This document shows, piece after piece, positions 5,053 to 22,390 of a DNA stretch of 23,294 bases. Under the pieces are notes generated by a model that saw only the letters and a program-made list of their open reading frames with translations, had not been told where the DNA came from and made no database searches. Every line of letters begins with the position of its first letter. Within the stretch, counting starts at the first letter, position 1. Source of the DNA: a virus; IMG/VR virus record IMGVR_UViG_3300047444_000725, positions 1 to 23,294 of that record; one strand, 5' to 3'. Position numbers and translations under genes: made by a program.

Positions 5053-5682
5053 ATGGGCGAAACGGTTTTCCCGGGAAACAAGAGCTACGGCGCGGTCAGG
5101 ATCGCCGCGTTCGGCTCTCTGGTCAACGGCGACACGATCACCATCGGCGATAAGGTGTACGAGTTCCGGACCTCGGGCTCCGCTGGCGCAGGCCACGTCC
5201 AGGTCAACGTCGGCATGGACGGTCCGGCTACGGCGCTCGCCCTTCAGGCGGCCATCGTGGCGAATCCTCCGACCCCTCAGATCGACGCCTACATCGACGC
5301 CATCGATTCGAAGGTCGTGCGCCTGGAAGCCCACGACTACGGCACCGCGGGGAACGTCGCCTTCTCGGCGTCGCTCACGGGCGGGACGAACATCATCGAC
5401 CAGACGAGCGGGTTCATGCTGGGCGGCGAAGCCGGGAGCCTGAAGCATCTCGATTCCGGCCGCTACACCGTTACGGCTCTGGACGTCGCGGCGACCGCGA
5501 TCATGATCCCGACCAAGCTGACCACGCCGAAGATCCTGTCGATCCAGGTGTTCGACGCGACGGGCGTTCTCAAGGCTGCGACGACCAAGTGGACGCAGTC
5601 GACCACGCGCATTAAGGGCGAGTTCGCCGGCGGGACGAATCCCGCGGCGACGGACATCGTCTGCTGGAGTGCCCGGGACTGA
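5053..5682 (+). CDS. Putative virion protein with one GDTITIGDKVYEF-type beta module
   Basis: A 209-residue protein preceded by a purine-rich SD (GAGAGAGGA) about 9 bases before ATG. Residues about 15-125 form a module beginning NGDTITIGDKVYEFRT, then GAGHVQVNVG, a helix (ATALALQAAIVAN) and later beta strands (VVRLEAHDYGTAGN). This module recurs in phage fibre and structural proteins and reappears in the neighbouring gene at 5721-6728. The C-terminal 80 residues are a separate beta-rich part (YTVTALDVAATAIMIPTKL ...). The copies suggest the two neighbours arose by duplication and probably form part of the same appendage or capsid-surface structure. Exact function is not known. Confidence 0.7.
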   Translation: MGETVFPGNKSYGAVRIAAFGSLVNGDTITIGDKVYEFRTSGSAGAGHVQVNVGMDGPATALALQAAIVANPPTPQIDAYIDAIDSKVVRLEAHDYGTAGNVAFSASLTGGTNIIDQTSGFMLGGEAGSLKHLDSGRYTVTALDVAATAIMIPTKLTTPKILSIQVFDATGVLKAATTKWTQSTTRIKGEFAGGTNPAATDIVCWSARD

Positions 5683-5720
5683 GCCTGACTTTCTTTTGAT
5701 TTGATATAGGAGACCGAACC

Positions 5721-6728
5721 ATGTCGAGCAAGTTTCCGCGAATCGAAGGCCAGAGAGCCATCAACGTCTTTCGGGTCGCCTCAGCGGGCGTGAACGCCCA
5801 GGTCGTCGTCATCGGTGCCGACACCTACGAGCTTGCCACCAGGGACGACCTCGCCGTCACGGCGGGCCATATCCCCGTGGACCTGACCGGCGGCGCGACG
5901 CGCAAGGCGAAGGCGAAGCTGACCTTCACCGGCCAGCCCTCCGACACCGAGACGATCACGATCAACGGCAAGGTCTACACGTTCCAGACCACGCTCACCC
6001 AGGTCGACGGCCACGTCCTGATCAGCGCGGTCAACGCCGAAGGGACGATCGACAACCTCGTCGCCGCGATCAACGGCGGAGCCGGCCGGGGCATCGCCTA
6101 CGGCACTCCGACGGTCACGAACACGATCTGCACGGCGGCCAAGAGCAGCACGGACAAGTGCATCCTCTCGGCCATCATCGCGGGCACCCCGGGCAACGCC
6201 TACACCCTGGCTGAGGCGGCGACCAACGTCGCCAAGGACGCCACGACCTTCGGGACCGAGCAGCTGGGGGTCGATCCGACCGCCGACGACGTCTCCGACG
6301 CCATGGTCGCCACGATCAACGCCGAGACGACCGAGGACATCGTGGCCCGCGAGATCGGCGACAACGAGTTCATGATCATGGGCAGGAAGTCCCGGCCCAT
6401 GGTGCTCACCTGCACCGAGACCCTGACGGGCTCGAACAACGCCTGGGCGGCGTCCGCGATGTACGGCGGCTCGCTCACCAAGAACCGGCGCATGGCGGTT
6501 GCCAGCCGCGTCCCGACTGCCGTCGAAGTCGCGCTCGGAAACATGCACTTCGAGCTCGACTTCACTCCCGCGACGGTCCTCGCGCGCGTGCGCGTGACCA
6601 CGACGCCGGGAGTCGATGTTGCCTGGGATGGCGCCGTGACGATCAGCGGCGGCCACGTCGTTCTCGACAACGCGGGCTCGACCGACTGGAGCGCGAGCCA
6701 TACCCTCGAGGTCATCTTCATCGAGTAA
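5721..6728 (+). CDS. Putative virion protein with two nested copies of the same beta module
   Basis: A 335-residue protein with AGGAG 8 bases before its ATG. It shares the module of the preceding gene. One copy is complete at about residues 63-175: TETITINGKVYTFQTTL, GHVLI, then the helix IDNLVAAING and a later AGTPGNAYTLAEA. A second copy appears split around it: VVVIGADTYELATRDD and AGHIPVDL at about 27-55, then its expected helix and strand (VSDAMVATINAETTEDIVAR and EIGDNEFMIMGRKSRP) at about 181-216. The remaining C-terminal part (about 221-335) is a different beta domain. I infer a virion surface or appendage role from the neighbours; family assignment is uncertain. Confidence 0.7.
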   Translation: MSSKFPRIEGQRAINVFRVASAGVNAQVVVIGADTYELATRDDLAVTAGHIPVDLTGGATRKAKAKLTFTGQPSDTETITINGKVYTFQTTLTQVDGHVLISAVNAEGTIDNLVAAINGGAGRGIAYGTPTVTNTICTAAKSSTDKCILSAIIAGTPGNAYTLAEAATNVAKDATTFGTEQLGVDPTADDVSDAMVATINAETTEDIVAREIGDNEFMIMGRKSRPMVLTCTETLTGSNNAWAASAMYGGSLTKNRRMAVASRVPTAVEVALGNMHFELDFTPATVLARVRVTTTPGVDVAWDGAVTISGGHVVLDNAGSTDWSASHTLEVIFIE

Positions 6729-6733
6729 TCGAA

Positions 6734-7492
6734 ATGTCGAAGAAGATCCGCGTCCTGTCCTGCGCAGACGCTACCGACGTCGGGGAGGTTCCCTCCCCGC
6801 GCGATCAGAGTCTCGCCTTGATCGAATCGACGGGGGTGTCCTGGCGTTTCGACGGCAGGAGCACGGCGACGCATGACGGAACCACCGTCATCAAGCCGGC
6901 GGCCAGGGCTGTCGAAAAGCCCGGCCGCTGGCTGGTCGTTCCTGGGGGAACGGGGTCGAGTGCAGGCTCCTGGGGGATCGCCTATGCTCGCGTCGCCAAG
7001 GACGCCGACACGAACGATTCTTCGGAGGTCGACACGGGCGTCGCAATCGAGGAGGGCTACGAATACGCCTTCGGTATGAAGCTCATCTCTCACGGCAACG
7101 CGGATTATTCGGACGCCTCGAATACCGTCAAGGTTCTCCAAGCCCTTCCGGGGGTGGCCCTGACCGTGACTCCGACCGTCGGGGGCGGCGCCGCCGAAGT
7201 CGATGGCGGAGTTCCCAATCCTATTCTCTTCGAGAACGTCCCAGCTTCCGACGTCAACGGCAAGCAACTTACCTTCGTAACCGGCGGTCCTAATGCGCTC
7301 GTCGCTGGGGTCGGATCGGTAGTTCACGGCGTCTTCGACTTCGTCGAGGACTACTTCCTCGCCTATCTCGCAGGGCAGACCTCTTACATCTCCGTAAAGA
7401 GAGACGGGACGATCCTCGCCTATTTCGGAGATTCCGGAAATCTGGGCGGACTCGATCTTGTCTTCTTCGTCGCCCGGAGGAAAGTCGCCTAA
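6734..7492 (+). CDS. Hypothetical phage protein, beta-rich
   Basis: A 252-residue protein that I cannot assign. The ATG is 5 bases after the previous stop and has only a weak SD-like GAG. The N-terminal 50 residues (CADATDVGEVPSPRDQSLAL ... STGVSWRFDGRS) read like the opening of phage fibre-head or capsid-decoration proteins, with a conserved tryptophan and aspartate-rich turns. The rest alternates beta strands and glycine turns (YEYAFGMKL, SYISVKRDGTILAYFGDSGN). No signal peptide or transmembrane segment is seen. It ends the accessory block and its stop shares one base with the ATG of the MuF-like gene (TAATG), so it belongs to the same transcript. A virion-surface role is inference from position only. 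Confidence 0.6.
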   Translation: MSKKIRVLSCADATDVGEVPSPRDQSLALIESTGVSWRFDGRSTATHDGTTVIKPAARAVEKPGRWLVVPGGTGSSAGSWGIAYARVAKDADTNDSSEVDTGVAIEEGYEYAFGMKLISHGNADYSDASNTVKVLQALPGVALTVTPTVGGGAAEVDGGVPNPILFENVPASDVNGKQLTFVTGGPNALVAGVGSVVHGVFDFVEDYFLAYLAGQTSYISVKRDGTILAYFGDSGNLGGLDLVFFVARRKVA

Positions 7493-8610
7493 TGTCCGAC
7501 GCGAAAGACCTGTCCTGGCTCCTGGGCACGCGCGACTCGGTCGCCGCGCTCGAGGGATACTATGGGCAGGTCTGGGATAAGATTCTGCGCGAGGTCGCTC
7601 TCGGGCTTGGACGCCCGGGAGCGGCCCAGCGCACGGGTCTACTCCTGCGCCTGAAGGCTCTCGTCGGCCAGCTTGACCCCTACCGTCAGACCGTCGTCCG
7701 GAAGTGGATCCGCGACTGGGCGAGCGCGTCCCTCATGCTCGGCGAGGAAAATGCCGTAGACGGAATTTCCTCCCAGAAGGACGTCGCGCACCCTGACCGG
7801 GCATCCTCCTTCGGGGACGTGGCGACCGACAAGTCGAAGGATTCTGGGGTCATGCTCGCGGGGCTGATCTCGGACGCCAGCGCGCGCCTTGCCGTCCTCC
7901 AAGCCCAGATCCTCTCCTCCCTGACCGGCGTGGTCACCCGCTCCCAGGGGGTACTCCTCGGGATGAGGAATCAGGGGGTCCTGGGAGGCCTCACCCAGCA
8001 GACCGTCGAGCGGGACCTTGCCGATCTCGTCCTGAAAGGCCCTTCCCCGGCCGCCATACGCGGCCTGCGGGGTCTGGGCTTCCCGGATGACCTGGTAACC
8101 GAGATCAAGCGCCTGGGCGAAGGCTGGGCCTCGTCTGAGGGCTCCAGGCTGCCCAAGGTGGCGGATCAGGCGGGGATGATCGGTGGCGGCCTCATCTCGG
8201 GCGGTCACGGGGCTGGGATCAAGGTCCGGTCCCGCCACAACGGCGTCGAGCACGTCCGGATCTCGAATCCTCCTCGCGTGGGCGAGCCGGATGTCTGCAC
8301 CGTCTTCGCCGGCCGCGTGTTCTTCATCGGCCTCGGGACCGATCCGCTGGGCTTCCCCAAGCTCTCCAGCGTGCCCAACGGCGGGCCGAAGTTCCATCCT
8401 CACTGTCGCCACGGCCTGCAGCCCTATGTCGTGGTCCTGAAGGACTCCGAAGAAGTCGATACCGAGGTCGAAGCGTCGAACGCCATCCCCGCGCAGTTCT
8501 TCAACGTCAAGCCTTACGCCGTCACGAAGGCCGTCCGCAAGATGGGCGCCGAGCAGATCAACCGGATCAATCCGGGCTCTCGGCCGCCTCGCAAGGAGAA
8601 AGTCGCATGA
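7492..8610 (+). CDS. MuF-like minor head protein
   Basis: A 372-residue protein of the Mu gpF/SPP1 gp7-like minor head group, a few copies of which sit near the portal. The N-terminal two thirds are helical. The C-terminal domain shows the diagnostic cysteine-histidine pattern: DVCTVFAGR at about residues 267-275 and GPKFHPHCRH at about 298-307, which resembles the conserved D-x-C ... F-H-P-x-C-R-H signature of MuF domains. Portal and MuF genes usually adjoin; here seven genes lie between them. There is no C-terminal toxin domain, as found in some MuF fusions; the end (residues 340-372) is short, basic and helical. The ATG overlaps the previous stop by one base and the stop overlaps the next ATG (ATGA). 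Confidence 0.8.
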   Translation: MSDAKDLSWLLGTRDSVAALEGYYGQVWDKILREVALGLGRPGAAQRTGLLLRLKALVGQLDPYRQTVVRKWIRDWASASLMLGEENAVDGISSQKDVAHPDRASSFGDVATDKSKDSGVMLAGLISDASARLAVLQAQILSSLTGVVTRSQGVLLGMRNQGVLGGLTQQTVERDLADLVLKGPSPAAIRGLRGLGFPDDLVTEIKRLGEGWASSEGSRLPKVADQAGMIGGGLISGGHGAGIKVRSRHNGVEHVRISNPPRVGEPDVCTVFAGRVFFIGLGTDPLGFPKLSSVPNGGPKFHPHCRHGLQPYVVVLKDSEEVDTEVEASNAIPAQFFNVKPYAVTKAVRKMGAEQINRINPGSRPPRKEKVA

Positions 8611-9505: not shown

Positions 9506-9554
9506 GAAAAAAGGGCATGTCGGTGCCGACACACCGCCACGCCCTTTTTCTTTT
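9506..9554 (+). terminator. Rho-independent terminator-like hairpin, probably bidirectional
   Basis: The arms AAAAAGGGC (9508-9516) and GCCCTTTTT (9541-9549) pair perfectly over 9 bp. Inside, TG/CA and CGGTG/CACCG can extend the stem, separated by single mismatches, with a CCGACA loop. The right arm continues into CTTTT, giving a U-rich tail on the + strand. The left arm is A-rich, so the minus strand would also have a U-tract, making it potentially bidirectional. It is in the 171-base gap between protease and scaffold genes, all reading rightward, so it is expected to reduce or end readthrough in the middle of the late operon. Confidence 0.75.
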
Positions 9555-9567
9555 CCCAAAAATTCGT

Positions 9568-9586
9568 GGGGCTTGCGGGACGCCCC
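9568..9586 (+). other. Small GC hairpin upstream of the scaffold gene
   Basis: GGGGC at 9568-9572 pairs with GCCCC at 9582-9586 around a 9-base loop. It lies between the terminator-like hairpin and the scaffold SD (AGGAG, 9614-9618). There is no recognisable sigma70 promoter in this gap. Function unknown; it may be chance in GC-rich DNA. Confidence 0.3.
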
Positions 9587-9626
9587 TTCAACTCCCCGCG
9601 CTGCGCGAGTGACAGGAGAACCAAGA

Positions 9627-10253
9627 ATGGACCTTTCGAAGCTCGCCGCAACGCTCGGTCTCCCCAAGGAGAGCACCGAGTCCGTGGTCTTCGAGGCGCT
9701 CGCGAAGCGCGATGCCGAAGGCCGTGCGGCTGTCGAATCCTTGTCGGCCGTGGCGGCCGAACTCCCGAAGCACGGCTTCAAGCTGGAAGCCGGGAAGCTG
9801 GTCGGCCCTCCCGCCGCCCCCGTGCGGCTCGACCTGGCCGCGAAGGCCGAGGACGACGAGGAGAAGAAGGCCCTGAAGGCCGCGCTGCTCGCGGCCGAGG
9901 AGAAGTCGATCGCGACGGGCCTCTCCTCCAACAAGGAGTACGTCAAGAAGCTCGCCGCCGACCTCAAGCTCCCGCCGGCCGCGATGTCCATCGTCGAGGA
10001 GTGCCTCAGCGTCCGCGGCGAGATGGAAGCCCTCGCGCTGTCGAAGGACGGCAAGGTCGAGGTCCGGAAGACCCAGGACCTCCCCAAGAAGCTCCGCACG
10101 CTGCTCGACCAGCTGGTCGGCATGAAGGGCGTGAAGTTCTCCACCGAGAACGAGTCGCCCAAGACCGAAGCGGACGCCGAGAAGGCCGCCCGCGAAAAGG
10201 CCTTCAAGGAGCACTTCTCGAAGCATGTGGAGGAGGTGCCCGCGGCCAAGTAG
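9627..10253 (+). CDS. Putative capsid scaffolding protein
   Basis: A 208-residue, highly charged, Lys/Glu/Ala-rich helical protein. A scaffold guides capsid assembly inside the prohead and is then removed. Support is its place between the protease and the decoration/major capsid genes, its helical and coiled-coil composition (about residues 60-100: AAKAEDDEEKKALKAALLAA), and a basic, Lys-rich C-terminus (AAREKAFKEHFSKH), the usual capsid-binding end. I chose ATG 9627 because AGGAG lies 8 bases upstream; a longer frame from 9573 exists, but its start has no SD and its extra residues look non-coding. The same GACAGGAGAA sequence precedes the tail tube gene. No family match is claimed. Confidence 0.65.
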   Translation: MDLSKLAATLGLPKESTESVVFEALAKRDAEGRAAVESLSAVAAELPKHGFKLEAGKLVGPPAAPVRLDLAAKAEDDEEKKALKAALLAAEEKSIATGLSSNKEYVKKLAADLKLPPAAMSIVEECLSVRGEMEALALSKDGKVEVRKTQDLPKKLRTLLDQLVGMKGVKFSTENESPKTEADAEKAAREKAFKEHFSKHVEEVPAAK

Positions 10254-10267
10254 TTCCCCAGCAGCTT

Positions 10268-10285
10268 GTCCCCGTGAGGGGTGAC
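10268..10285 (+). other. Small GNRA-type hairpin between scaffold and decoration genes
   Basis: CCCC (10270-10273) and GGGG (10278-10281) pair around a GTGA loop, which fits the GNRA tetraloop class; GT/AC can pair outside with a bulge. It sits 14 bases after the scaffold stop. It is weak alone but is one of several hairpins found after individual head genes. Confidence 0.35.
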
Positions 10286-10318
10286 TGAACCTGAAAAACG
10301 ATTGTTGGAGATGAAACC

Positions 10319-10833: not shown

Positions 10834-11859
10834 ATGCTCGACGAAACCCTCCTGCATTGGGAGAACCTGACCCGGCTGGTCAACGACTACAAGCCGCAGG
10901 GGACTCCCCTGATCGATTCCGGTCTGTTCTCGAAGGCGCCGATCGAAGGCCAGTCGGCCGTCATCGACATCATCAAGGTCAACCGGACGAAGGCGCACTC
11001 GACCGGCAAGCGGTCGCCCTCCAAGACCATCGCGCCTGAGGTGATCAAGCGCCAGCCGCTCACCCTGTCCCGCGCGTTTGAGAACGTGCCCCTCCCGGGC
11101 TCGACGCTGCTCAACCTGCGCAACCCCGGAAGCTTCAACCTCCAGAAGATCGCGGCCGACCAGGTGGCCCGCGAGGTGAAGAAGATGGGCCGACGGATCG
11201 ACTATCGGAACGAGTTCTACATGGCTTCGGCCTTGCAGGGCTCGATCACCGACACGATCGACGGCGTCAGCTTCACCGCCGACTACATGTTCCCGGCCAG
11301 CCACAAGATCACGATCGGCGGGAATGAGCTGTCGAACGACTCCTTCGGCACCGCTTGGGACGACACGGGCGCGAAGATCTCCTTCGACGTGACGAAGCTC
11401 CGTCAGAAGGCCCGCGAGGATTCGGGCTTCGAGATCGACACGATCATCGCCGGTCCGGAAGTCATGGACGCGCTGATCAACAACGAGCTCGTCTCGACCT
11501 ACCTCCGGTCGACCCAGGAAGGCATCGCCTTCATGAAGAGCGGCTTCCGCGGCGAGCTCTTCGGAGTCAAGTGGATGGAGTACGGCGCCGGCTACAAGGA
11601 CGACAGCGACGTCTTCCAGCGCTTCCTCCCCGAGGGCGTGATCTGCGCCATCCCGGCGGCGGATCCCCTCCTGGCCGAGCTCCTGTCGGGCGACGACGTG
11701 ATCCCGACGCCGAACAAGATGGACGTGCAGTCCATCAACGGCCGCTACAGCTATGCGTCCATCACGGACGATCCCGCGGGGATCAAGCTGTTCGCCGGTG
11801 AAGTGTCCCTCCCCGTGATCTACGTCCCCGGGGCGTTCTTCACGGCCACGGTCCTGTAG
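10834..11859 (+). CDS. Major capsid protein (lambda gpE-like/Phage_cap_E family)
   Basis: A 341-residue protein with the pattern of the gpE-type major capsid family: an N-terminal arm, then LIDSGLFSKAPIEGQSAVID, a VNRTKAHSTGKRSPSKTIAP loop (about residues 49-68) leading into a conserved FENVPLPG-like turn, a long spine-like helix (IAADQVAREVKKMGRRIDYR), and EFYMASALQGSITDTIDGV. It ends with a beta-rich part including AAADPLLAELLSGDDVIPTP and VYVPGAFFTATV-like strands. It follows the decoration gene, as usual. AAAGGAG lies 8 bases before ATG. A long hairpin follows its stop. This is a well-supported assignment, although no alignment was run. Confidence 0.85.
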   Translation: MLDETLLHWENLTRLVNDYKPQGTPLIDSGLFSKAPIEGQSAVIDIIKVNRTKAHSTGKRSPSKTIAPEVIKRQPLTLSRAFENVPLPGSTLLNLRNPGSFNLQKIAADQVAREVKKMGRRIDYRNEFYMASALQGSITDTIDGVSFTADYMFPASHKITIGGNELSNDSFGTAWDDTGAKISFDVTKLRQKAREDSGFEIDTIIAGPEVMDALINNELVSTYLRSTQEGIAFMKSGFRGELFGVKWMEYGAGYKDDSDVFQRFLPEGVICAIPAADPLLAELLSGDDVIPTPNKMDVQSINGRYSYASITDDPAGIKLFAGEVSLPVIYVPGAFFTATVL

Positions 11860-11927: not shown

Positions 11928-12497
11928 ATGCCTGACATCGTGGCGACCATCGGCGACCCGGCGGCGAATTCGTATCTCTCGCTCGCCGATGCCGACAAGG
12001 CCATGGACGGCTTTCCGAATGCTCTGGCGTGGCTCAACCTCGACGAGGCCACCCGCCAGAGGCATCTCCTAGACGGCTCCCGCAGGATCGACCGCTTCAA
12101 GGCCTGGATTCCCAAGCAGGACCCCGCCCAGGCTCTCGCCTTCCCCACGAAGAAGGATCCCACGGGCGAGCTTCCCCCGGAGGTCCCGAACGCCCTCCTC
12201 GAGTTTCTCGACTTCCAGGCTTCCGGCGAGATGGCGTCGATCAAGAGGCTGCAGGCCGAAGGGGTGACGAACCGTTCCATCATGGGCCAGAGCACGACTT
12301 TCAAGGCCGATGCGAGCCAGCTTCCCGCCGGCGCGCGGAACGAACTCGAAAAGCTCTGGAGGCTCTACAGCTCCCCGGTCATGGTCCGCCACCCTCATCG
12401 CCAGATGTTCGTCCGCGGCCTGACCAATCAATCGCCCTTCTCGGGTGATCCGGTGAATTCCTTCGACAACGGCCCCTTGGAGCCCTTGAGCGACTGA
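11928..12497 (+). CDS. Head-tail adaptor protein (gp6/DnaT-like group)
   Basis: A 189-residue protein directly after the major capsid gene. Its N-terminus has the pattern of phage neck adaptors often labelled DnaT-like: NSYLSLADADKAMDGFPN, a W-L (residues about 35-36), a helix with ATRQRHLLDGSRRIDRF, and a segment ALAFPTKK. Such proteins bind below the portal as a connector ring. The C-terminal 70 residues, with GVTNRSIMGQSTTFKADASQ and an LWRLYSSP helix-like end, fit the same group. GGAGG lies 8 bases before ATG. Position, length and pattern all agree, but no structure comparison was possible. Confidence 0.7.
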   Translation: MPDIVATIGDPAANSYLSLADADKAMDGFPNALAWLNLDEATRQRHLLDGSRRIDRFKAWIPKQDPAQALAFPTKKDPTGELPPEVPNALLEFLDFQASGEMASIKRLQAEGVTNRSIMGQSTTFKADASQLPAGARNELEKLWRLYSSPVMVRHPHRQMFVRGLTNQSPFSGDPVNSFDNGPLEPLSD

Positions 12498-12877
12498 TGC
12501 TCGACATCGACTTCGGAAACGTCGTGACCCTGAGGAGGCAGCGGCTCGGCTCGCGCAAGAACGCGACCGACGTCGTCTGGGATCCCGTCCTCGATCTCAC
12601 GAACGAACCGCTCCGGATCAAGTGCCGCTTCAAGCGCAGCGGGGTCAAGAACTTCTCGCTCCAGGCGGGAGAGGAACAGTCTGACGCGACGATGCTCTTC
12701 CGGGTGACGGCAATCCAAGACGTCACCCGGGAAAACCTCGTCGTTGATCAGCGCGGGGAAGCCTACAAGGTTCTCCGCTTTCGCGAGGAAGAGGACATCG
12801 ACCTCGCGGCCACCTACAAGCAGGTCGAGCTCAAGAAGGTCGACAAGACCTTCCCGCCGGGAGGGCCCGATGTCTGA
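12497..12877 (+). CDS. Putative head-tail stopper/closure protein
   Basis: A 126-residue, beta-rich protein. Its ATG shares one base with the previous stop (TGATG). It reads like a small neck protein: VVTLRRQRLGSRKN at the start, a barrel-like centre (EPLRIKCRFKRSG ... SDATMLFRVTAIQD), then a segment DQRGEAYKVLRFREEEDID resembling the last strands of head-closure proteins. The stopper plugs the neck after DNA packaging. I assign it mainly by size, beta composition and place between the adaptor and gp10-like genes; it could instead be another neck protein. Confidence 0.55.
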   Translation: MLDIDFGNVVTLRRQRLGSRKNATDVVWDPVLDLTNEPLRIKCRFKRSGVKNFSLQAGEEQSDATMLFRVTAIQDVTRENLVVDQRGEAYKVLRFREEEDIDLAATYKQVELKKVDKTFPPGGPDV

Positions 12878-13987: not shown

Positions 13988-15049
13988 ATGACCGATCCCT
14001 TGAGCGTGAACGTCCGCGGTGCGGATCCCCGGAACTACGGAGTCGCCAAGCGGGCGAGCCTGTGGGTTCGTCCCTTCGGCTCGACCGATGATGCCGCATG
14101 GGACGAGATCGGCAACCTCGCGGACCTCTCGGCCCTGCCGGAAATCACCAAGCTGGAGCACAAGTCGAACCGCCGCGGGGGCCTCGTGCGCGACCGGATC
14201 GAGTACACCGAGCGCAAGATGACCCTCGACGTCAAGCTCGACGAAGTCAAGACGTCCAACCTGCTCAAGGCCTTCGGCTCCTCGATCGGGAAGAACGTCG
14301 GAAGCGCGACGGTCCGCGAAGGGAAGATCGTGAAGAACCCCGGCGAGGGCCTTTCGGTCGCCCTCGGCATGGCGGGGATCGACTCCCTGATCGTGCGCTC
14401 GACGAACGAAGAAGGCTCCGTCACGACCTACGACGTCGATCCCATCGAGACGGACTCCACCGACGACACCGTCAGCACGGACTTCACCAACGTCACCAAT
14501 CCCCTGACCGTGGTGGGCGCGGTCACCAGCTACACCGGCACCGTGTTCGTGGTGGGAATGCTCATCAAGATCCAGAACGAAATCCTGCGCGTCACGGCCA
14601 TCAACGGGAACGACGTCACCTTCGCCCGTGGACAGCTGGGCACGACGGCGGCGTCCCATGCCGCGGCCCTGGACATCTTCGTCGGCAACGCCAAGGACTA
14701 CGCCCAGGATCTCGTCACTGCGGCGGTCTACGTCCTGCCCGGCGGAGCCCTCGCCGACGAGACCACGGTTCCCGAGTTCCACATCTACTTCACGAAGGAC
14801 GTCGATACCGAGTCCTTCGAGATGTTCGACGGAACGCCCATCAAGCTCGAGGCGGAGTATCAGGTGCTCACCACGAAGGGCGCCCGCATCGTCATGACCC
14901 TCCCGCACACGGTCATCACGAACAAGGGCGCGATCACCTTCGGCCTGGGCGACAAGTGGATCGAGATGCCCCTCGAGCTCGACGTCCTGTCGGACGAGAA
15001 CGGCTCGCTCGGGACGTTCCACGTCATCGACGCGGCGGCGACTCTCTAA
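13988..15049 (+). CDS. Major tail tube protein with an inserted domain
   Basis: A 353-residue protein with AGGAG 8 bases before ATG. The N-terminal part (SLWVRPFGSTDDAAWDEIGN; LSALPEITKLEHKSNRRGG; YTERKMTLDVKLDEV) and the C-terminal part (EFHIYFTKDVDTESFEMFDG; EYQVLTTKGARIV) fit a tail tube protein. Tube subunits are commonly shorter; here residues about 168-232 form an inserted module of the pattern VVGMLIKIQNEILRVTAING followed by RGQLGTTAASHAA, which recurs as an add-on domain in phage virion proteins. Its position, after the terminator and before the chaperone pair, agrees. No sheath gene is present, indicating a non-contractile tail. A long hairpin follows the stop. Confidence 0.75.
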   Translation: MTDPLSVNVRGADPRNYGVAKRASLWVRPFGSTDDAAWDEIGNLADLSALPEITKLEHKSNRRGGLVRDRIEYTERKMTLDVKLDEVKTSNLLKAFGSSIGKNVGSATVREGKIVKNPGEGLSVALGMAGIDSLIVRSTNEEGSVTTYDVDPIETDSTDDTVSTDFTNVTNPLTVVGAVTSYTGTVFVVGMLIKIQNEILRVTAINGNDVTFARGQLGTTAASHAAALDIFVGNAKDYAQDLVTAAVYVLPGGALADETTVPEFHIYFTKDVDTESFEMFDGTPIKLEAEYQVLTTKGARIVMTLPHTVITNKGAITFGLGDKWIEMPLELDVLSDENGSLGTFHVIDAAATL

Positions 15050-15128: not shown

Positions 15129-15479
15129 GTGGCGAATTTGGCGAAGACCCCGGAGGGGCTCGGGAAGAGAGAAGCCCTCGTCGATCTCTCGGACGGATCG
15201 ACGATCGTAGTCCACAAATGGGCGAGCGGCAAATACAGGGAACTCCTACCTCACGTCGGCCTCCTCGCCGGCGTGCCGACGATCGCGGAGCAATCCGTCG
15301 CCGAGGCTGACCGCGAGCGCGTCCGGACGATGGAGTTCGATGACCAGATGGCGATCGCGACCGCGGGATCGGCTCTGAGCGTGACGCCCTCAGTCCTAAA
15401 AAACTTGCAGACGCTCCTCGATCAGAGAAGGGGGCTCGAGGACGCGACGAAGAAGGCAGCCCCCTCGAATCCAGTCTAG
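15129..15479 (+). CDS. Tail assembly chaperone, upstream ORF (lambda G-like)
   Basis: A 116-residue protein with a GTG start preceded by AAGGAGG (15116-15122) at 6 bases. It is mostly helical and acidic-basic mixed, including SDGSTIVVHKWASGKYREL and LDQRRGLEDATKK. The place between the tail tube and tape measure genes is that of the lambda G-type chaperone that coats the tape measure during tail assembly. Codons 90-92 are CTA AAA AAC, making a slippery site in frame, so some ribosomes are expected to shift to -1 and continue into the next ORF. The unshifted product ends at TAG 15477-15479. The family is inferred from place, size and frameshift signal, since these chaperones share little sequence. 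Confidence 0.75.
   Translation: MANLAKTPEGLGKREALVDLSDGSTIVVHKWASGKYRELLPHVGLLAGVPTIAEQSVAEADRERVRTMEFDDQMAIATAGSALSVTPSVLKNLQTLLDQRRGLEDATKKAAPSNPV
15398..15442 (+). promoter_or_regulatory. -1 programmed ribosomal frameshift signal (A AAA AAC plus stem-loop)
   Basis: The heptamer AAAAAAC lies at 15398-15404. In the frame of the upstream chaperone it is read ctA AAA AAC, the X XXY YYZ arrangement for tandem -1 slippage. After slipping, reading continues in the frame of the next ORF, with 35 sense codons and no stop before its ATG at 15509. Downstream, TCCTCGA (15415-15421) pairs with TCGAGGA (15436-15442) over 7 bp with a 14-base loop, 10 bases after the heptamer, a plausible stimulator. By eye I found no other six-A run inside a gene in this window. 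Confidence 0.85.
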
Positions 15480-15508
15480 GAACGATATGCGCATCCGGAA
15501 TAGCGACG

Positions 15509-15811
15509 ATGTCGGAGCTCCTCGCCTGGGACGGTCCCTGGTCGATGGATCTCGTCAATCTGATGCTCCCGGTTGCGGTCGAGATCGAGACGAAGCGGGA
15601 GCAGGCTTTCTATCGGGCGGCCCTCGCGGCGATCGCGGCGGTCTTCTCGAAGGGGGACGTCGGGAAGAAGTATTCGGAGTCGCTCGAGAGGGTCATCGCG
15701 CTAGTTCGGGCGGATCAGGCGGCAGCCCGCGGGGAAGCCGGAATGGATCACCACTCCGTAGCGGCTCAGAAGCTCATGGATGTCGTCCTGCCCATGATGA
15801 CGAGGGGATGA
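15509..15811 (+). CDS. Tail assembly chaperone, downstream ORF (T part)
   Basis: A 100-residue helical ORF with ATG at 15509 but no clear SD in front (only GGAATAGCG). This weak start, together with the open frame running back to the slippery site, suggests that it is mainly made as the C-terminal part of the frameshift fusion. It contains SELLAWDGPWSMDLVNLMLP, a helix (VEIETKREQAFYRAALAAIA) and an end typical of no specific family. In lambda the T domain binds the tail tube protein while G coats the tape measure. Its stop (15809-15811) is 5 bases from the stop of a gene on the other strand, so the two converge. Confidence 0.75.
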   Translation: MSELLAWDGPWSMDLVNLMLPVAVEIETKREQAFYRAALAAIAAVFSKGDVGKKYSESLERVIALVRADQAAARGEAGMDHHSVAAQKLMDVVLPMMTRG

Positions 15812-15816
15812 GCCTA

Positions 15817-16005
15817 CTAGTTGCTGCGGAAGTCTCGGGCCCTCGGGCTCGGTCGGAGAAGGATGCTCTCGAGGTCGAAGGTCGGGATCGGAAGGGGCTT
15901 TCGCTTCCGGTCGCTCCTCCAGACGGCGATCGCCGTCGCGAGAAGGTAGGCGATGAAGGCCGTCTTCCCGAGCGGGGTCATGAAGAGCCAGTAGAGAAAG
16001 GCCAT
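15817..16005 (-). CDS. Small single-pass membrane protein on the antisense strand
   Basis: A 62-residue protein. It has one hydrophobic segment, about residues 3-29 (FLYWLFMTPLGKTAFIAYLL then ATAIAVW), followed by a basic stretch (RSDRKRK) and a short polar end, so it is predicted to sit in the inner membrane with the tail inside. Codon third positions are mainly G or C, as in the virion genes, which supports real coding against an overlapping + strand shadow. ATG is 3 bases after the stop of the secreted protein gene on the same strand, with AAGGA about 13 bases away, so coupling is likely. Possible roles: superinfection exclusion, or a lysis-related membrane protein. I know of no direct match. 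Confidence 0.6.
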   Translation of the reverse strand: MAFLYWLFMTPLGKTAFIAYLLATAIAVWRSDRKRKPLPIPTFDLESILLRPSPRARDFRSN

Positions 16006-16008
16006 GGC

Positions 16009-16344
16009 CTAGCGCTGGTCCTTCAGGCTCTTCTGATAGGCCTCTTCCTTTGCGGCGCACTTCCCGGCGCCGCAATCCTCGGTCCAGGTATGCGAGTAGG
16101 CGCGGTTGTGGGCCTTCGCCAAGCCGTCGAGGCCGGCGCATCTCTCATCGTAGTCGCACCGACTCCCGACTCGATGGTTCGGGAAGAGACGACGATGGAC
16201 CTCCGCCTTCTGGATCCGAAGGCTCTCCGTAAGGAGGGCCTTGATCTCGTCGAGCTTTCCGGCGTCGTCGTTCGCTGGACGGGCTGCGAGCCCGAGGACC
16301 GCCAGGACGAGAAGAGCCGGGAGTGCCGATCCGAGCTTCGCCAT
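16009..16344 (-). CDS. Small secreted cysteine-containing protein on the antisense strand
   Basis: A 111-residue protein with a signal-peptide-like start: MAKLGS, a hydrophobic core LPALLVLAVLGLAA, then RPAND with a possible cleavage after ARPA. It has no lipobox cysteine. The mature part begins with a helix (KLDEIKALLTESLRIQKAEV) and ends with four cysteines (about residues 63, 69, 90 and 95: RCDYDERC and DCGAGKC), able to make two disulphides in the periplasm. GGAGG (16351-16355) lies 6 bases before the ATG on this strand. Third codon positions are mostly G/C. The transcript would run opposite to the tail operon. Candidate roles: moron effector, superinfection factor, or spanin-like helper; no assignment is secure. 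Confidence 0.65.
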   Translation of the reverse strand: MAKLGSALPALLVLAVLGLAARPANDDAGKLDEIKALLTESLRIQKAEVHRRLFPNHRVGSRCDYDERCAGLDGLAKAHNRAYSHTWTEDCGAGKCAAKEEAYQKSLKDQR

Positions 16345-16402: not shown

Positions 16403-18109
16403 GTGCCTGACGGCTTTGATGCAGGAAGCATCTTTGTTGCGCTCCGGGCCCAACTGGACGACTTCAACAAGGGGATCGCCTCCGCGAAGGATACGCTCTC
16501 GAGCCTCGGCCAGACGAGCAGCGAGGTTACGGTCGCCTTCACGGAACTCGACACGTCCGTTCAGGTCTTTACCGAGATCGAGACGGCCGCGCCACGGGTT
16601 AGGACGGCGCTCGCTACGGTCGGAGCGGAATCGCGGAATGCGGCCGTAGGCTTCCAGCAGCAGCGGCAAGCGGTAGACGAGACGGAACAGGCGCACCAAA
16701 GATCGAACTTCACCCTCGGCCGCTCGGCGAACCGGATCCTCTCGGTCCAGCTTGCGCTGATTACGCTCTCCCAACATGCCGGACCGTTCCGGGATCTCTT
16801 CCAGGGAATATCGAACGGAGTTTCGACCGCCGCGGCCTCGATGCAACTCTTCGGCGACAAGTTATCCCTAGCGAGCGGTGGGCTGATCGCCATCGGCGTC
16901 GCGATCGAGAGCTTCCTCTTCCGTGCCTGGGAGGACGCGATCAAGGCGCAGGACGAGGGGACGGACCAGCTCGAGAAGAGCACGAAGCGAATCGACGAGC
17001 TCAAGAACGCCCTCGAGGACGCGGCGAAGGTCGCGAAGGTCTTTGGGTCTACCTACGGCGAGGACCTTTCCCGCAAGCTGAGCCTGACCGAGGCAGAATA
17101 TGCATCGAACCTCAAACGCCTCCGCGAGATCTCGGCGGAGATCGCGAAGCTCAACTCGACCGACCCCGGCCTCTTCGGGAGCGATCGGACGGACAAGATC
17201 TCAGCCCTCAACCTCGAGAGGACGCGCCTAAGCGGGCAGCAAGACACTATTCAGCAGACGGGGCTCTTCGATAAGCAATTCGCAGCGGCGGTTAAGATCA
17301 CCGATGCGACGAAGGCCTTCAACAAGGAGCTTGAGAATACCGAGATCGTCGGGCAGAAGGCTCTCCAGTTTGGGGTCGCGGAGCCGGCGGAGATCGCTGC
17401 GAAGAGCCTCTCGGACGCGAGGTCGGAGTTTGATCGCCTGATCCTAGACAACGCGAAGCTCCAGGACGAGGCGAACAAGTATGGGCTGACCGATGACCAG
17501 AGGAATAAGATCCTCGCGCGTCTTCATTCCTTCGACGAGATCCAATCAGCGGCAGACAAGGAGAGGGCGGCGAAGGCCTACAACGACCAGGTAAAGGCGG
17601 TCAACGACCTCGCCTCGACCTTCTCGACGTCCGTCGGCGATGGTCTCCGGGATGCGCTGATCAACGCGAAGAAGCCCATGGAAGCCCTCGCGTCGATCGG
17701 TCAAAACCTCTTCGCCAATATGGTCGACCAGACGATCAAGCGCCTAGAGACCGGGCTCACGGAAGCATTCAAGGCGATCACCGGCGTCGCTGGCGAGGGG
17801 ATCGGCCTCGCGCTTACGGGGATCCTCGGCGCCGCTGGCGCGGTCCTTTCGAAGCTCGGCTCGAAAGGCTCCGACTCTTTCGGCTCCGTCCAGAGCGCGG
17901 TCACAAGCTCCCAGGCGGTGCGCGGCATCGTGGCGGGGCCGTCATCCGTCGCAATCGCGACCGTCTCAGATGACCTCGCTCGCGCGGTCGCCCCTGTGGT
18001 CCAGCGGCTCGATATGGCGATCGGATACCTCGCGTCCATCGACCGCAAGACCGGGAGCGGCGGGCGGGGCGGAATCGGCGGTTCGAACGTGGCACTTGCA
18101 ACCCCATAA
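16403..18109 (+). CDS. Tape measure protein
   Basis: A 568-residue protein that sets tail length and helps DNA pass into the host. Start is GTG with AAGGGGGT (16390-16397) 5 bases upstream. It is largely helical. There is a hydrophobic stretch at about 155-172 (ASGGLIAIGVAIESFLF), a long charged coiled-coil centre (about 180-400), a conserved end region (about 411-460: VGDGLRDALINAKKPMEALA then SIGQNLFANMVDQTIKRLET) that is typical of tape measure C-termini, then a Gly/Ala hydrophobic stretch (463-484). The last 80 residues are variable. At 1.5 angstrom per residue the tail would be about 85 nm. It follows the chaperones, with the antisense gene pair in between. Confidence 0.85.
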   Translation: MPDGFDAGSIFVALRAQLDDFNKGIASAKDTLSSLGQTSSEVTVAFTELDTSVQVFTEIETAAPRVRTALATVGAESRNAAVGFQQQRQAVDETEQAHQRSNFTLGRSANRILSVQLALITLSQHAGPFRDLFQGISNGVSTAAASMQLFGDKLSLASGGLIAIGVAIESFLFRAWEDAIKAQDEGTDQLEKSTKRIDELKNALEDAAKVAKVFGSTYGEDLSRKLSLTEAEYASNLKRLREISAEIAKLNSTDPGLFGSDRTDKISALNLERTRLSGQQDTIQQTGLFDKQFAAAVKITDATKAFNKELENTEIVGQKALQFGVAEPAEIAAKSLSDARSEFDRLILDNAKLQDEANKYGLTDDQRNKILARLHSFDEIQSAADKERAAKAYNDQVKAVNDLASTFSTSVGDGLRDALINAKKPMEALASIGQNLFANMVDQTIKRLETGLTEAFKAITGVAGEGIGLALTGILGAAGAVLSKLGSKGSDSFGSVQSAVTSSQAVRGIVAGPSSVAIATVSDDLARAVAPVVQRLDMAIGYLASIDRKTGSGGRGGIGGSNVALATP

Positions 18110-19537: not shown

Positions 19538-20941
19538 ATGAGCAACACCTACGGCCGTCCTCAAATGAAAAGCCCGGACTGGAGCCGGACCCAGCGGGCG
19601 AACGCCCCGCGCATCGCCGGGGTCGTCCCTGCGCTGAATGCCCCGCGCGAGAGCGCGAACGTGATCCTGAACAAGCAGATCGCGACTCTGAGCAGGGCGG
19701 GATCGAATCCAGGGAATCCCATCCTCGCGGGCCTCGGGGTCCATCTCCAGATCGCCATGGGCTTGAACGACCGCCTGATCGCCCTTTACCTGTACCAGGA
19801 CCAGGGCATCCCGGGAGCGAACCTCGTTTCCCAGGCCTCGCCGGCGGGCCAGTATGCGACCTTCGACTTCCGCGCGGGCAGCGGGCGCACCGTGGCGGGA
19901 GACGCCTCGACCGGCTCGGTCAAGAACTTCGTCCGCTTCCAGACTGAAGGCGGGACCGTCGAGCGGGAATTCTGGATCAAGAACTACGACGCCGACGTCG
20001 TGACGCTGAACGGCACGGCTGCGCTCGACTCCGTGACGCTCCTCCCCGTCGTGATCCCGCTCTCGATCGTGAACGTGAGCCGGGACTGGATCGACGTCGA
20101 CGTGGACTTTATGTCTTCGTGGAACGACGAGTTCCAGGTTCTCGCTCGCTCGGGCGGCCAGCAGGCGGAAGCGGGCTTCCGCAAGCCCTACGGCGGCGCC
20201 CTGTTCGTCTCGTTCTTCGACAAGACCCCTGGGACCGAAGGCGTTGGGGTTCAGGTCAATCCCATCACCCAGGACATCATCTATACCCGCCGGTCGATCC
20301 AGATCCAGAATACGGCGGGTCTGAAGGAAATCACCGTCCGCTTCCGCTCCGCCCGGGATTCCTCGTTCTTCGTGGACGTCCCGATCAAGTTCCTGGTCTC
20401 GGCGCCGGATGATACGCTGTGCGATCCACCTTTCTCCGAGCCTTGCTCCTCGCCCTACTTCAAGGCTGGGACCGCACTCCCCGCGGACTGTCCCGCCGTC
20501 GCAAGCGTGCCGGGCGTGCAGGTCGTGGCAGGCGTCGAGGGCTCTTCGCTCTCCCAGGATCTCCTCGTCGTCACCGTCCACGGGACCGCCGTCGGGGCTT
20601 CCCCTAAGCTCCGCGTCCGGAAAGAGAAGTGGATCGCGAATAGCAAGGCGCTGGCCGGTGCGGACCTCGAGCAGATTGGCTCGGACGAGGACTATCTCCC
20701 GCTCGTCCTTCCCGGAGACAGCCCCGTCGAGCCTTCCCCTTACGGCTCGCCCCAGCGGCTCACCATCGCGTTCTCGGTCGTCCAGCTGCGCTCGGATCTT
20801 GTCGCCTTCCTGAACGTCGTGGTGATCGACGGCGACCACGTCTCAAGCCCCATCGCGATCCCCGGCCCCAAGGCGCGGGACATCTCGGGGATGCCCATCG
20901 GAGGCCTCGGCGGAACCGGGGCTGATATGTGCGCGTACTAG
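19538..20941 (+). CDS. Large unassigned tail-tip or fibre protein
   Basis: A 467-residue protein, largely beta-rich. ATG 19538 is one base after the previous stop; GTG 19529 is an alternative in the same frame. It contains VNVSRDWIDVDVDFMSSWND and DIIYTRRSIQIQNTAGLKE in its centre, and four cysteines (CDPPFSEPCSS, DCPAV and the last near the C-terminus) in the C-terminal half. The final 100 residues (SPYGSPQRLTIAFSVVQLRS; LNVVVIDGDHV) look like a separate beta domain with Gly-rich end. No enzyme motif is seen. Its size and place after the tape measure, before two glycosyltransferases and the hub-like gene, suggest a virion tip or fibre component; it is a possible target for those glycosyltransferases, which is speculation. 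Confidence 0.6.
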   Translation: MSNTYGRPQMKSPDWSRTQRANAPRIAGVVPALNAPRESANVILNKQIATLSRAGSNPGNPILAGLGVHLQIAMGLNDRLIALYLYQDQGIPGANLVSQASPAGQYATFDFRAGSGRTVAGDASTGSVKNFVRFQTEGGTVEREFWIKNYDADVVTLNGTAALDSVTLLPVVIPLSIVNVSRDWIDVDVDFMSSWNDEFQVLARSGGQQAEAGFRKPYGGALFVSFFDKTPGTEGVGVQVNPITQDIIYTRRSIQIQNTAGLKEITVRFRSARDSSFFVDVPIKFLVSAPDDTLCDPPFSEPCSSPYFKAGTALPADCPAVASVPGVQVVAGVEGSSLSQDLLVVTVHGTAVGASPKLRVRKEKWIANSKALAGADLEQIGSDEDYLPLVLPGDSPVEPSPYGSPQRLTIAFSVVQLRSDLVAFLNVVVIDGDHVSSPIAIPGPKARDISGMPIGGLGGTGADMCAY

Positions 20942-21675
20942 AGCCCGGCCTCGTCTCGGTCATCACGGCGACCTGTAACCGGCCGCTCTTTCTCCGAAAG
21001 GCGATCGACCTCTTCATGGCCCAGACCTGGCCGAAGAAGGAAATGATCATCATGGACGACGGATCGATGGATGCCCCGAACGTCGCGGGGCTTCCGATCC
21101 GTCACGTTCGGCTTCCCTCTCCGACGTGGATCACCCACAAGCACCGCCTCGCCTTCCCGCTTTGCCGCGGGGAGTTCATCGGCTATTGGGACGACGACGA
21201 CTACTTCGACCATCGACGCCTCTCGCTCCAGGCTCAAGCCCTGATGGAGGATAAGGCCGACGTTGTCGGCTTCCACGTCAAGTTACTGGCGAGCGTTCCC
21301 GATCCGCTCTTTTGGAGATGGAGCCGGAAGACCCTAGAGAAGTGGGACCGCGAGGCGAAGCCGGGTTTCGCTTCTGGGCTTCCGTTCCATGATGGGACTG
21401 CGGTCTGGCGGGCTTCCCTGCTCGAAGGCGTCTCCGAGGACGTCCTTCAGGGCTCACAGCTGGATCTCCTCCGAGTGCTTCGCGCACGCGGCGCAAGGCT
21501 GATCGAGATCCCGAATGACGGCGCCTTCGTCTATGTGCGCCATTCCCGGGTCGGCTGGGACTTCGACGTCCGCGAGCTTTGCGATCCGGTCGACTGTCCT
21601 CCCTGGATCCCCCGCGAGATGCTCGCATTCTGGGCGAATTCAGATCTCGCCGACGAGGGGGTGCGCGTTGGGTAA
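20929..21675 (+). CDS. GT2-family glycosyltransferase (GT-A fold), first copy
   Basis: A 248-residue protein. It opens with VSVITATCNRPLFLRKAIDL, the usual start of GT2 enzymes, then MIIMDDGS (DDG at 43-45) and GYWDDDDYF (DxD-type acidic cluster at 88-91), which bind the nucleotide-sugar and metal. Later motifs are HDGTAVWR (about 154-161) and VYVRH (about 201-205), shared with the next gene. There is no transmembrane segment, unlike GtrB-type O-antigen enzymes, so it should act in the cytoplasm. Start is GTG at 20929, overlapping the previous gene by 13 bases, with GGGG about 7 bases upstream. The acceptor is unknown: virion protein, host surface sugar or DNA are all possible. Confidence 0.85.
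   Translation: MRVLEPGLVSVITATCNRPLFLRKAIDLFMAQTWPKKEMIIMDDGSMDAPNVAGLPIRHVRLPSPTWITHKHRLAFPLCRGEFIGYWDDDDYFDHRRLSLQAQALMEDKADVVGFHVKLLASVPDPLFWRWSRKTLEKWDREAKPGFASGLPFHDGTAVWRASLLEGVSEDVLQGSQLDLLRVLRARGARLIEIPNDGAFVYVRHSRVGWDFDVRELCDPVDCPPWIPREMLAFWANSDLADEGVRVG
21655..21661 (+). promoter_or_regulatory. Strong SD that decides a TTG start
   Basis: GAGGGGG lies 6 bases before TTG 21668 and inside the end of the first glycosyltransferase gene. No ATG or GTG in the second gene's frame is similarly placed, so this SD is the reason for choosing TTG. Confidence 0.6.
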
Positions 21676-22390
21676 TCCCCTCGTCTCCCTAGTCTGCCCG
21701 ACGTGGAACCGTCCCCAGTATCTCGCCCATGCGGTCAAGCTGTTCCAGGCCCAGACCTACCGGGACTGCGAGTTGATTGTGGTCGACGACAGCGACCCGG
21801 ATAAGAGGCCGAACCTGTCGGGCGTCCCGCGCGTCCGGCACATCAAGCTCGGCGACAAGCTCTCGCTCGGGGAGAAGCATAACATCGGGCACGCGATGGC
21901 CCAGGGGGAAATCCTTGGCTTTCACGACGATGACGATTGGATCTCGCCGCGCCGGGTGATCCGCCAGATCGAGCCGCTGATCCTGGGCACCGCCCAGATC
22001 GTCGGCTTCAAGCGTAACGTCGTCCTATCGGCCGGCGACCCTGTCCGGTGGTGGAAGATCGAGGGCCGGGGAAACTGGATCGGGAACGGCGCGACGAATC
22101 TCAGGCTCCCGATTCACGACGGGAGCGCCCTATACCTGCGCTCCGTCCTCAAGACGGGCGCTCGGTTCCCGCATCGGACCATGAATGAGAAGGTCGACTT
22201 TCTGAATGCGGCCGTCGCCGGCGGGGCGACCTGGACCGTCATCCCGAACGCCGACCTCTTCGTCTATGTGCGCCACGGCGCGAATACCTGGAAGTACAGC
22301 GAGGCGCTCGCCCATGTTTCCGTTGCCGCGCCTTACTGGTTCCCGGATTCCGAGATGGAATTCTATCGCACGGCGAAGGTGAGCGCGTGA
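21668..22390 (+). CDS. GT2-family glycosyltransferase (GT-A fold), second copy
   Basis: A 240-residue relative of the previous gene. The start is most likely TTG 21668, because GAGGGGG (21655-21661) lies 6 bases upstream and the protein then begins directly with the GT2 opening MGNPLVSLVCPTWNRPQYL. The acidic motifs are VVDDSD (38-43) and FHDDDDW (85-91), followed by HDGSALYLRS and VYVRH, all in the same order as the first copy. No transmembrane segment. The overlap with the first copy is 8 bases. Side-by-side copies point to gene duplication and possibly sequential transfer of two sugars. The frame is open upstream to 21515, but that would include shadow sequence from the first gene. Confidence 0.8.
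   Translation: MGNPLVSLVCPTWNRPQYLAHAVKLFQAQTYRDCELIVVDDSDPDKRPNLSGVPRVRHIKLGDKLSLGEKHNIGHAMAQGEILGFHDDDDWISPRRVIRQIEPLILGTAQIVGFKRNVVLSAGDPVRWWKIEGRGNWIGNGATNLRLPIHDGSALYLRSVLKTGARFPHRTMNEKVDFLNAAVAGGATWTVIPNADLFVYVRHGANTWKYSEALAHVSVAAPYWFPDSEMEFYRTAKVSA

What the first reader, a model, noticed from the sequence alone, without database searches (positions are those of the whole stretch)
15398..15811. Canonical -1 frameshift signal linking the two tail chaperones
Seen: AAAAAAC at 15398-15404 in frame as ctA AAA AAC at codons 90-92; after a -1 shift there are 35 sense codons and no stop before ATG 15509; a 7-bp stem (15415-15421 with 15436-15442) follows; the downstream ORF lacks a good SD. 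Known: lambda G/GT and many other tailed phages make the chaperone fusion by -1 slippage. Inference: a 227-residue fusion is made in a small proportion, and simple ORF calling would miss it. A six-A run is conspicuous in such GC-rich coding DNA.
Basis: partly seen in the sequence, partly recalled or inferred. Interest (0 to 1): 0.7.

Follow-up and report, generated by a model that had tools for sequence, protein, structure and literature searches.

The report
Phage tail-chaperone −1 frameshift site
A virus of microbes, known only from an environmental sequence, carries a standard slip-back signal that probably lets ribosomes fuse two small tail-building helper proteins, a trick already well known from phage lambda and many other phages; it is ordinary in kind.

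Summary
A AAA AAC lies at 15398-15404 in slippery register at codons 90-92 of ORF1 (15129-15479). The -1 frame is open from 15344 to 15811, so a slip gives a 227-residue fusion. AAAAAAC somewhere in the window is unremarkable (52 of 100 shuffles have one). Its placement is not: 0.03-0.04 in-frame canonical heptamers are expected in the 45-codon overlap. The genes follow an Ig-like major tail protein and precede a probable tape-measure gene. Distant siphophages with this layout mostly carry A AAA AAG at the junction (Vibrio), and one Stenotrophomonas phage record annotates the fusion. Caulobacter phage phiCbK uses the identical heptamer. Homology of ORF1/ORF2 to known chaperones was not shown, and no close relative covers the site, so conservation is untested. 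Verdict: very likely a lambda G/GT-type -1 frameshift, a new member of a known kind.

The parts
15129..15479 (+). ORF1, 116 aa, probable tail assembly chaperone (lambda G-like, zero-frame product)
   Evidence: Coding signal +30 bits in this frame over 15129-15397, strong SD -11.7 kcal/mol; lies directly after the major tail protein; no family match
15398..15404 (+). A AAA AAC slippery heptamer in -1 register (codons 90-92 of ORF1)
   Evidence: expected 0.03-0.04 in-frame canonical heptamers in the overlap
15344..15811 (+). -1 open frame, stop to stop, containing ORF2; a slip at the heptamer makes a 227-aa fusion
15509..15811 (+). ORF2, 100 aa from its first ATG; probable T-like extension domain, predicted all-helical (low confidence)
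   Evidence: Coding signal +43 bits in the -1 frame only; weak SD -3.5 kcal/mol; low-confidence model
15412..15446 (+). Stem 1: 7 bp 15415-15421/15436-15442, optionally +3 bp 15412-15414/15444-15446 around a bulge; starts 7-10 nt after the heptamer
   Evidence: unexceptional on its own (5% of genic positions)
15429..15465 (+). Stem 2 of a possible H-type pseudoknot: 15429-15435 (AGGGGGC) with 15459-15465 (GCCCCCT); the 5' arm lies in the loop of stem 1 and abuts its 3' arm
   Evidence: Stack sum S1+S2 -32.2 kcal/mol; equalled at 0.18-0.54% of 5713 genic positions and in 1.6% of synonymous recodings; found post hoc
13988..15049 (+). Major tail protein with Ig-like domain (phrog_807, E 4.3e-14)
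16403..18109 (+). Probable tape measure protein (568 aa); only weak support
   Evidence: tblastn E 0.8 to an annotated tape measure protein of Vibrio phage PG28; Pfam TMP_N E 0.39; position

Best explanation
This is a -1 programmed ribosomal frameshift site that makes two tail assembly chaperones from one start, as lambda G and GT do. Most ribosomes read ORF1 to its stop at 15479. A minority slip back one base on A AAA AAC and read on to 15811, appending the T-like domain. By analogy with lambda, the short form coats the tape measure protein, and the long form in small amount links it to the major tail protein. A downstream pseudoknot or hairpin may raise the slip rate, since A AAA AAC is reported to be less slippery than A AAA AAG in E. 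coli. Shown here: heptamer, register, open frame and gene position. Inferred: the slippage, the product ratio, the chaperone role and the stimulator.
For: In-frame A AAA AAC in the overlap with an open -1 frame into ORF2. Only 0.03-0.04 canonical heptamers expected there. ORF2 has a clear coding signal in exactly the -1 frame and a weak SD. It lies after an Ig-like major tail protein and upstream of a probable tape measure gene. Of nine Vibrio siphophages with this tail-gene order, eight have A AAA AAG near the end of the first ORF with the -1 frame open 66-67 codons past its stop; SM1, DLP_5 and Summit have an in-frame T TTT TTT with an open -1 frame; Summit's record annotates a 'frameshift product'. 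phiCbK has A AAA AAC at codon 140 with an annotated 'programmed frameshift' (PMC3556154). The same heptamer is proposed in Acinetobacter phages Loki and IME_AB3 (PMC5313236) and haloarchaeal virus HCTV-2 (PMC5009743).
Against: No homology of ORF1 or ORF2 to chaperone families, and profile comparison with the Vibrio and SM1/DLP_5 fusions is not significant (the two reference groups also barely match each other). The only near relative, L002, ends just before the tail protein, so heptamer conservation is untested. In 15404-15508 the -1 frame shows no coding bias. Two reverse-strand ORFs separate ORF2 from the tape-measure candidate, which is unusual.
Confidence: 0.86

Rival explanations
1. ORF2 is a separate gene. 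Ribosomes that end ORF1 at 15479 reinitiate 30 bases on at ATG 15509, or start there independently, and the heptamer is a chance A6 run.
For: An ATG is in frame at 15509, close behind the ORF1 stop; 5 of 23 other starts in the window have an even weaker predicted SD; a long open -1 frame is common in this GC-rich DNA.
Against: About 0.03-0.04 in-frame canonical heptamers expected in the overlap; the same junction in distant phages of this layout carries a slippery heptamer; weak SD.
Confidence: 0.1
2. The fusion arises by transcriptional slippage on the A6 run (mRNAs with one base more or fewer) and not by ribosome slippage.
For: The site is one of only two runs of six or more A on this strand.
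Against: Six A is short for polymerase slippage (general knowledge); the run sits exactly in X XXY YYZ register and ends in C as in known ribosomal sites.
Confidence: 0.03
3. ORF1 and ORF2 are not tail chaperones but other small genes joined by a frameshift.
For: No family match to either ORF; two reverse-strand ORFs lie between ORF2 and the tape-measure candidate.
Against: Slot directly after the major tail protein, two-ORF -1 layout and sizes match chaperone pairs in phages with a related tail protein.
Confidence: 0.07

Closest known systems
Lambda G/GT tail assembly chaperone -1 frameshift (reviewed in PMC5009743)
   Same: Short upstream ORF, in-frame slippery heptamer in its 3' part, -1 extension domain, located between the major tail protein and tape measure genes
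   Different: Heptamer A AAA AAC (from general knowledge lambda uses G GGA AAG); slip 25 codons before the ORF1 stop; no sequence similarity shown
Caulobacter phage phiCbK tail assembly chaperone (NC_019405; PMC3556154)
   Same: Identical heptamer A AAA AAC in a tailed phage, annotated programmed frameshift, next to the tape measure gene
   Different: Slip at the very end of the first ORF; longer extension (about 156 aa against 135); no sequence similarity shown
Vibrio siphophages PG28, LV6, PJ32, 29Fa.3, MS01, 1.215.A, V-YDF132, J26
   Same: Major tail protein, two ORFs in -1 relation, tape measure; A6 heptamer near the end of the first ORF; PG28 tape measure weakly matches the window's (E 0.8)
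   Different: A AAA AAG; no strong stem or pseudoknot behind it; chaperone proteins not detectably similar
Stenotrophomonas phage Summit / DLP_5 and Pseudomonas phage SM1
   Same: Ig-like major tail protein, chaperone ORF, -1 extension, tape measure; Summit annotated as a frameshift product
   Different: In-frame T TTT TTT as the only canonical heptamer; tape measure directly adjacent

Membership tests
Lambda G/GT-type tail-chaperone -1 frameshift | X XXY YYZ heptamer in zero-frame register within the 3' part of the upstream ORF | tested here: met
   A AAA AAC at codons 90-92 of 116
Lambda G/GT-type tail-chaperone -1 frameshift | -1 frame open from the heptamer through the downstream ORF | tested here: met
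   Open 15344-15811
Lambda G/GT-type tail-chaperone -1 frameshift | Genes lie between the major tail protein and the tape measure protein | tested here: inconclusive
   Major tail protein upstream is clear (phrog_807); the tape-measure assignment is weak and two reverse-strand ORFs intervene
Lambda G/GT-type tail-chaperone -1 frameshift | Sequence or fold similarity to tail assembly chaperones | tested here: inconclusive
   No Pfam, PHROG or NCBIfam match; hhalign not significant, nor is it between two reference groups; models too poor for a fold search
Lambda G/GT-type tail-chaperone -1 frameshift | Heptamer and open frame conserved among relatives | tested here: inconclusive
   The only near relative stops before the tail protein; distant phages share the arrangement
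Lambda G/GT-type tail-chaperone -1 frameshift | Fusion product is made in minor amount | not testable with these tools
   Needs mass spectrometry or a reporter assay
Pseudoknot-stimulated -1 frameshift sites | Stable H-type pseudoknot about 5-10 nt behind the heptamer | tested here: inconclusive
   Geometry present; stack sum equalled at 0.18-0.54% of genic positions and 1.6% of synonymous recodings, post hoc; no covariation data

The most novel reading that the evidence does not exclude
The site is a pseudoknot-stimulated A AAA AAC frameshift in a phage tail gene: a less slippery heptamer (by E. coli data) compensated by a GC-rich H-type pseudoknot, unlike the A AAA AAG sites of comparable Vibrio phages, which show no strong structure.
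Probability: 0.35. Interest if true: 0.33.

Novelty: new member of a known kind. Interest (0 to 1): 0.2.

Why it matters
It corrects the gene model: ordinary ORF calling would list two small unrelated hypothetical proteins, whereas the virus probably makes a short chaperone and a 227-residue fusion. It extends a well-known mechanism to a poorly sampled virus group whose chaperones are too diverged for profile searches. The possible pseudoknot offers a simple test of whether weaker heptamers are paired with stronger stimulators.

Tried and rejected
Eight viral-contig scans and two genome-contig scans with the tail, capsid, minor head and neck proteins, ORF1 and the -1 frame found only one relative, L002, which ends before the tail protein, so no covariation or conservation test was possible. 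tblastn of the capsid, major tail, ORF1, -1 frame and tape-measure proteins in phages gave nothing significant apart from a short tail-protein segment that also matches other phage proteins, plus weak tape-measure and tail-protein hints. Leptospira phage LE1 (one shared domain) and a Paenibacillus plasmid with phage genes (capsid 24% identity) were read and judged too distant. Single-sequence structure models of ORF1 and the -1 frame were too poor (mean pLDDT 42 and 50) to search with. No Rfam family in the window; no PDB sequence match to the -1 frame.

Full report
The window is a whole IMG/VR virus record of 23,294 bases, GC 63%. It carries a portal protein (432-2342, phrog_113 and Pfam Portal_Mu), a minor head protein (7492-8610), a major capsid protein of the Phage_cap_E family (10834-11859), a head-tail adaptor (11928-12497), a probable head completion protein (12497-12877, weak) and a major tail protein with Ig-like domain (13988-15049, phrog_807, E 4.3e-14). 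The finding concerns the two ORFs directly after the tail protein.

Every detail of the observation checks. A AAA AAC at 15398-15404 spans codons 90-92 of ORF1 (15129-15479) in slippery register, and the -1 frame is open from 15344 to 15811 with 35 sense codons between the slip and ATG 15509. The fusion is 92 + 135 = 227 residues. AAAAAAC occurs once in the window, which is what shuffles give (mean 0.80), so its presence alone means nothing. Its place does: canonical heptamers in frame number 5 in 6932 codons of the window's ORFs, so 0.03-0.04 would be expected in the 45-codon stretch where the frames overlap. The open -1 frame itself is weak evidence, since 62% of 35-codon stretches in this GC-rich DNA are open in that frame. 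ORF2 is coding in exactly that frame (+43 bits against -34 and -75 for the others) and has a weak Shine-Dalgarno, while ORF1 has one of the strongest in the window.

But a stem of that strength occurs at 5% of genic positions, and the stretch does not fold better than shuffles. The loop of this stem contains AGGGGGC (15429-15435), complementary to GCCCCCT (15459-15465). Together they give an H-type pseudoknot with loops of 7 and 16 nt and no base between the helices. Its summed stacking energy, -32.2 kcal/mol, is equalled at 0.18-0.54% of 5713 genic positions, depending on the geometry allowed, and in 1.6% of synonymous recodings of the same peptide. With a pseudoknot penalty of about 10-12 kcal/mol (constants from memory) it would be about as stable as the best nested fold (-18.8). 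I noticed this pairing by eye before testing it, so those fractions understate chance. It is a candidate, not a result.

Relatives. Only one close relative was found, L002 (IMGVR_UViG_3300020118_000209), mostly 45-80% identical over the head and neck genes, but it ends just before the tail protein. Conservation of the heptamer could therefore not be tested. Weak matches of the tail protein and tape-measure candidate led to Vibrio and Pseudomonas/Stenotrophomonas siphophages with the same order: major tail protein, two ORFs, tape measure. In eight of nine Vibrio phages A AAA AAG lies in slippery register near the end of the first ORF and the -1 frame is open 66-67 codons past its stop; the ninth, KarBoss, has the heptamer but its second ORF is out of -1 register. 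SM1, DLP_5 and Summit have T TTT TTT as the only in-frame canonical heptamer with an open -1 frame, and Summit's record annotates a tape measure chaperone frameshift product. The proteins are not detectably similar to ORF1/ORF2; the profile comparison was insignificant, as it also was between the two reference groups. These phages show that the slot is used this way, not that the heptamer is inherited.

Known precedents: lambda makes G and GT in about a 30:1 ratio, where the G part binds the tape measure protein and the T part the major tail protein (PMC5009743). A AAA AAC is the reported site in phiCbK and its relatives (PMC3556154; read here at codon 140 of the NC_019405 gene), and is proposed in Acinetobacter phages Loki and IME_AB3 (PMC5313236), haloarchaeal HCTV-2 (PMC5009743) and possibly Paenibacillus phage Dragolir (PMC6003738). 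In E. coli A AAA AAC is less slippery than A AAA AAG (PMC5009743), which would make a stimulator more useful here; the Vibrio sites show no comparable structure. This last step is inference.

Conclusion: very probably a lambda-type -1 frameshift producing a tail-chaperone pair. It is a new member of a known kind. Chaperone identity rests on position and architecture; slippage itself is untested.

Noticed in passing
window 15817-16005 (-) and 16009-16344 (-): Two small reverse-strand ORFs with good coding signal (22.5 and 26.9 bits) sit between ORF2 and the tape-measure candidate: a 62-aa protein with one membrane segment and a 111-aa protein with a signal-like N-terminus and several cysteines, perhaps lysis proteins. 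An opposite-strand pair inside a tail operon is unusual.
   Followed up: partly
L012 1196-1255 (Vibrio phage KarBoss): A AAA AAG is present, but the second ORF lies in the +1 frame because the stretch behind the heptamer is one base shorter than in relatives; a +1 or -2 shift, or a sequencing error.
   Followed up: partly
window 20929-22390: Two overlapping family 2 glycosyltransferase genes at the end of the tail region.
   Followed up: no
window 5053-6728: The C-terminal part of 5721-6728 matches phrog_18828 (E 6.4e-28) and a protein of Leptospira phage LE1 (41% identity); parts of this gene and its neighbour 5053-5682 map to overlapping places in L002, suggesting shared domains or rearrangement.
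   Followed up: no
window 9507-10288: ORF 9566-10288 has no predicted Shine-Dalgarno and lies just downstream of the only other A6 run (9507-9512) on this strand.
   Followed up: no
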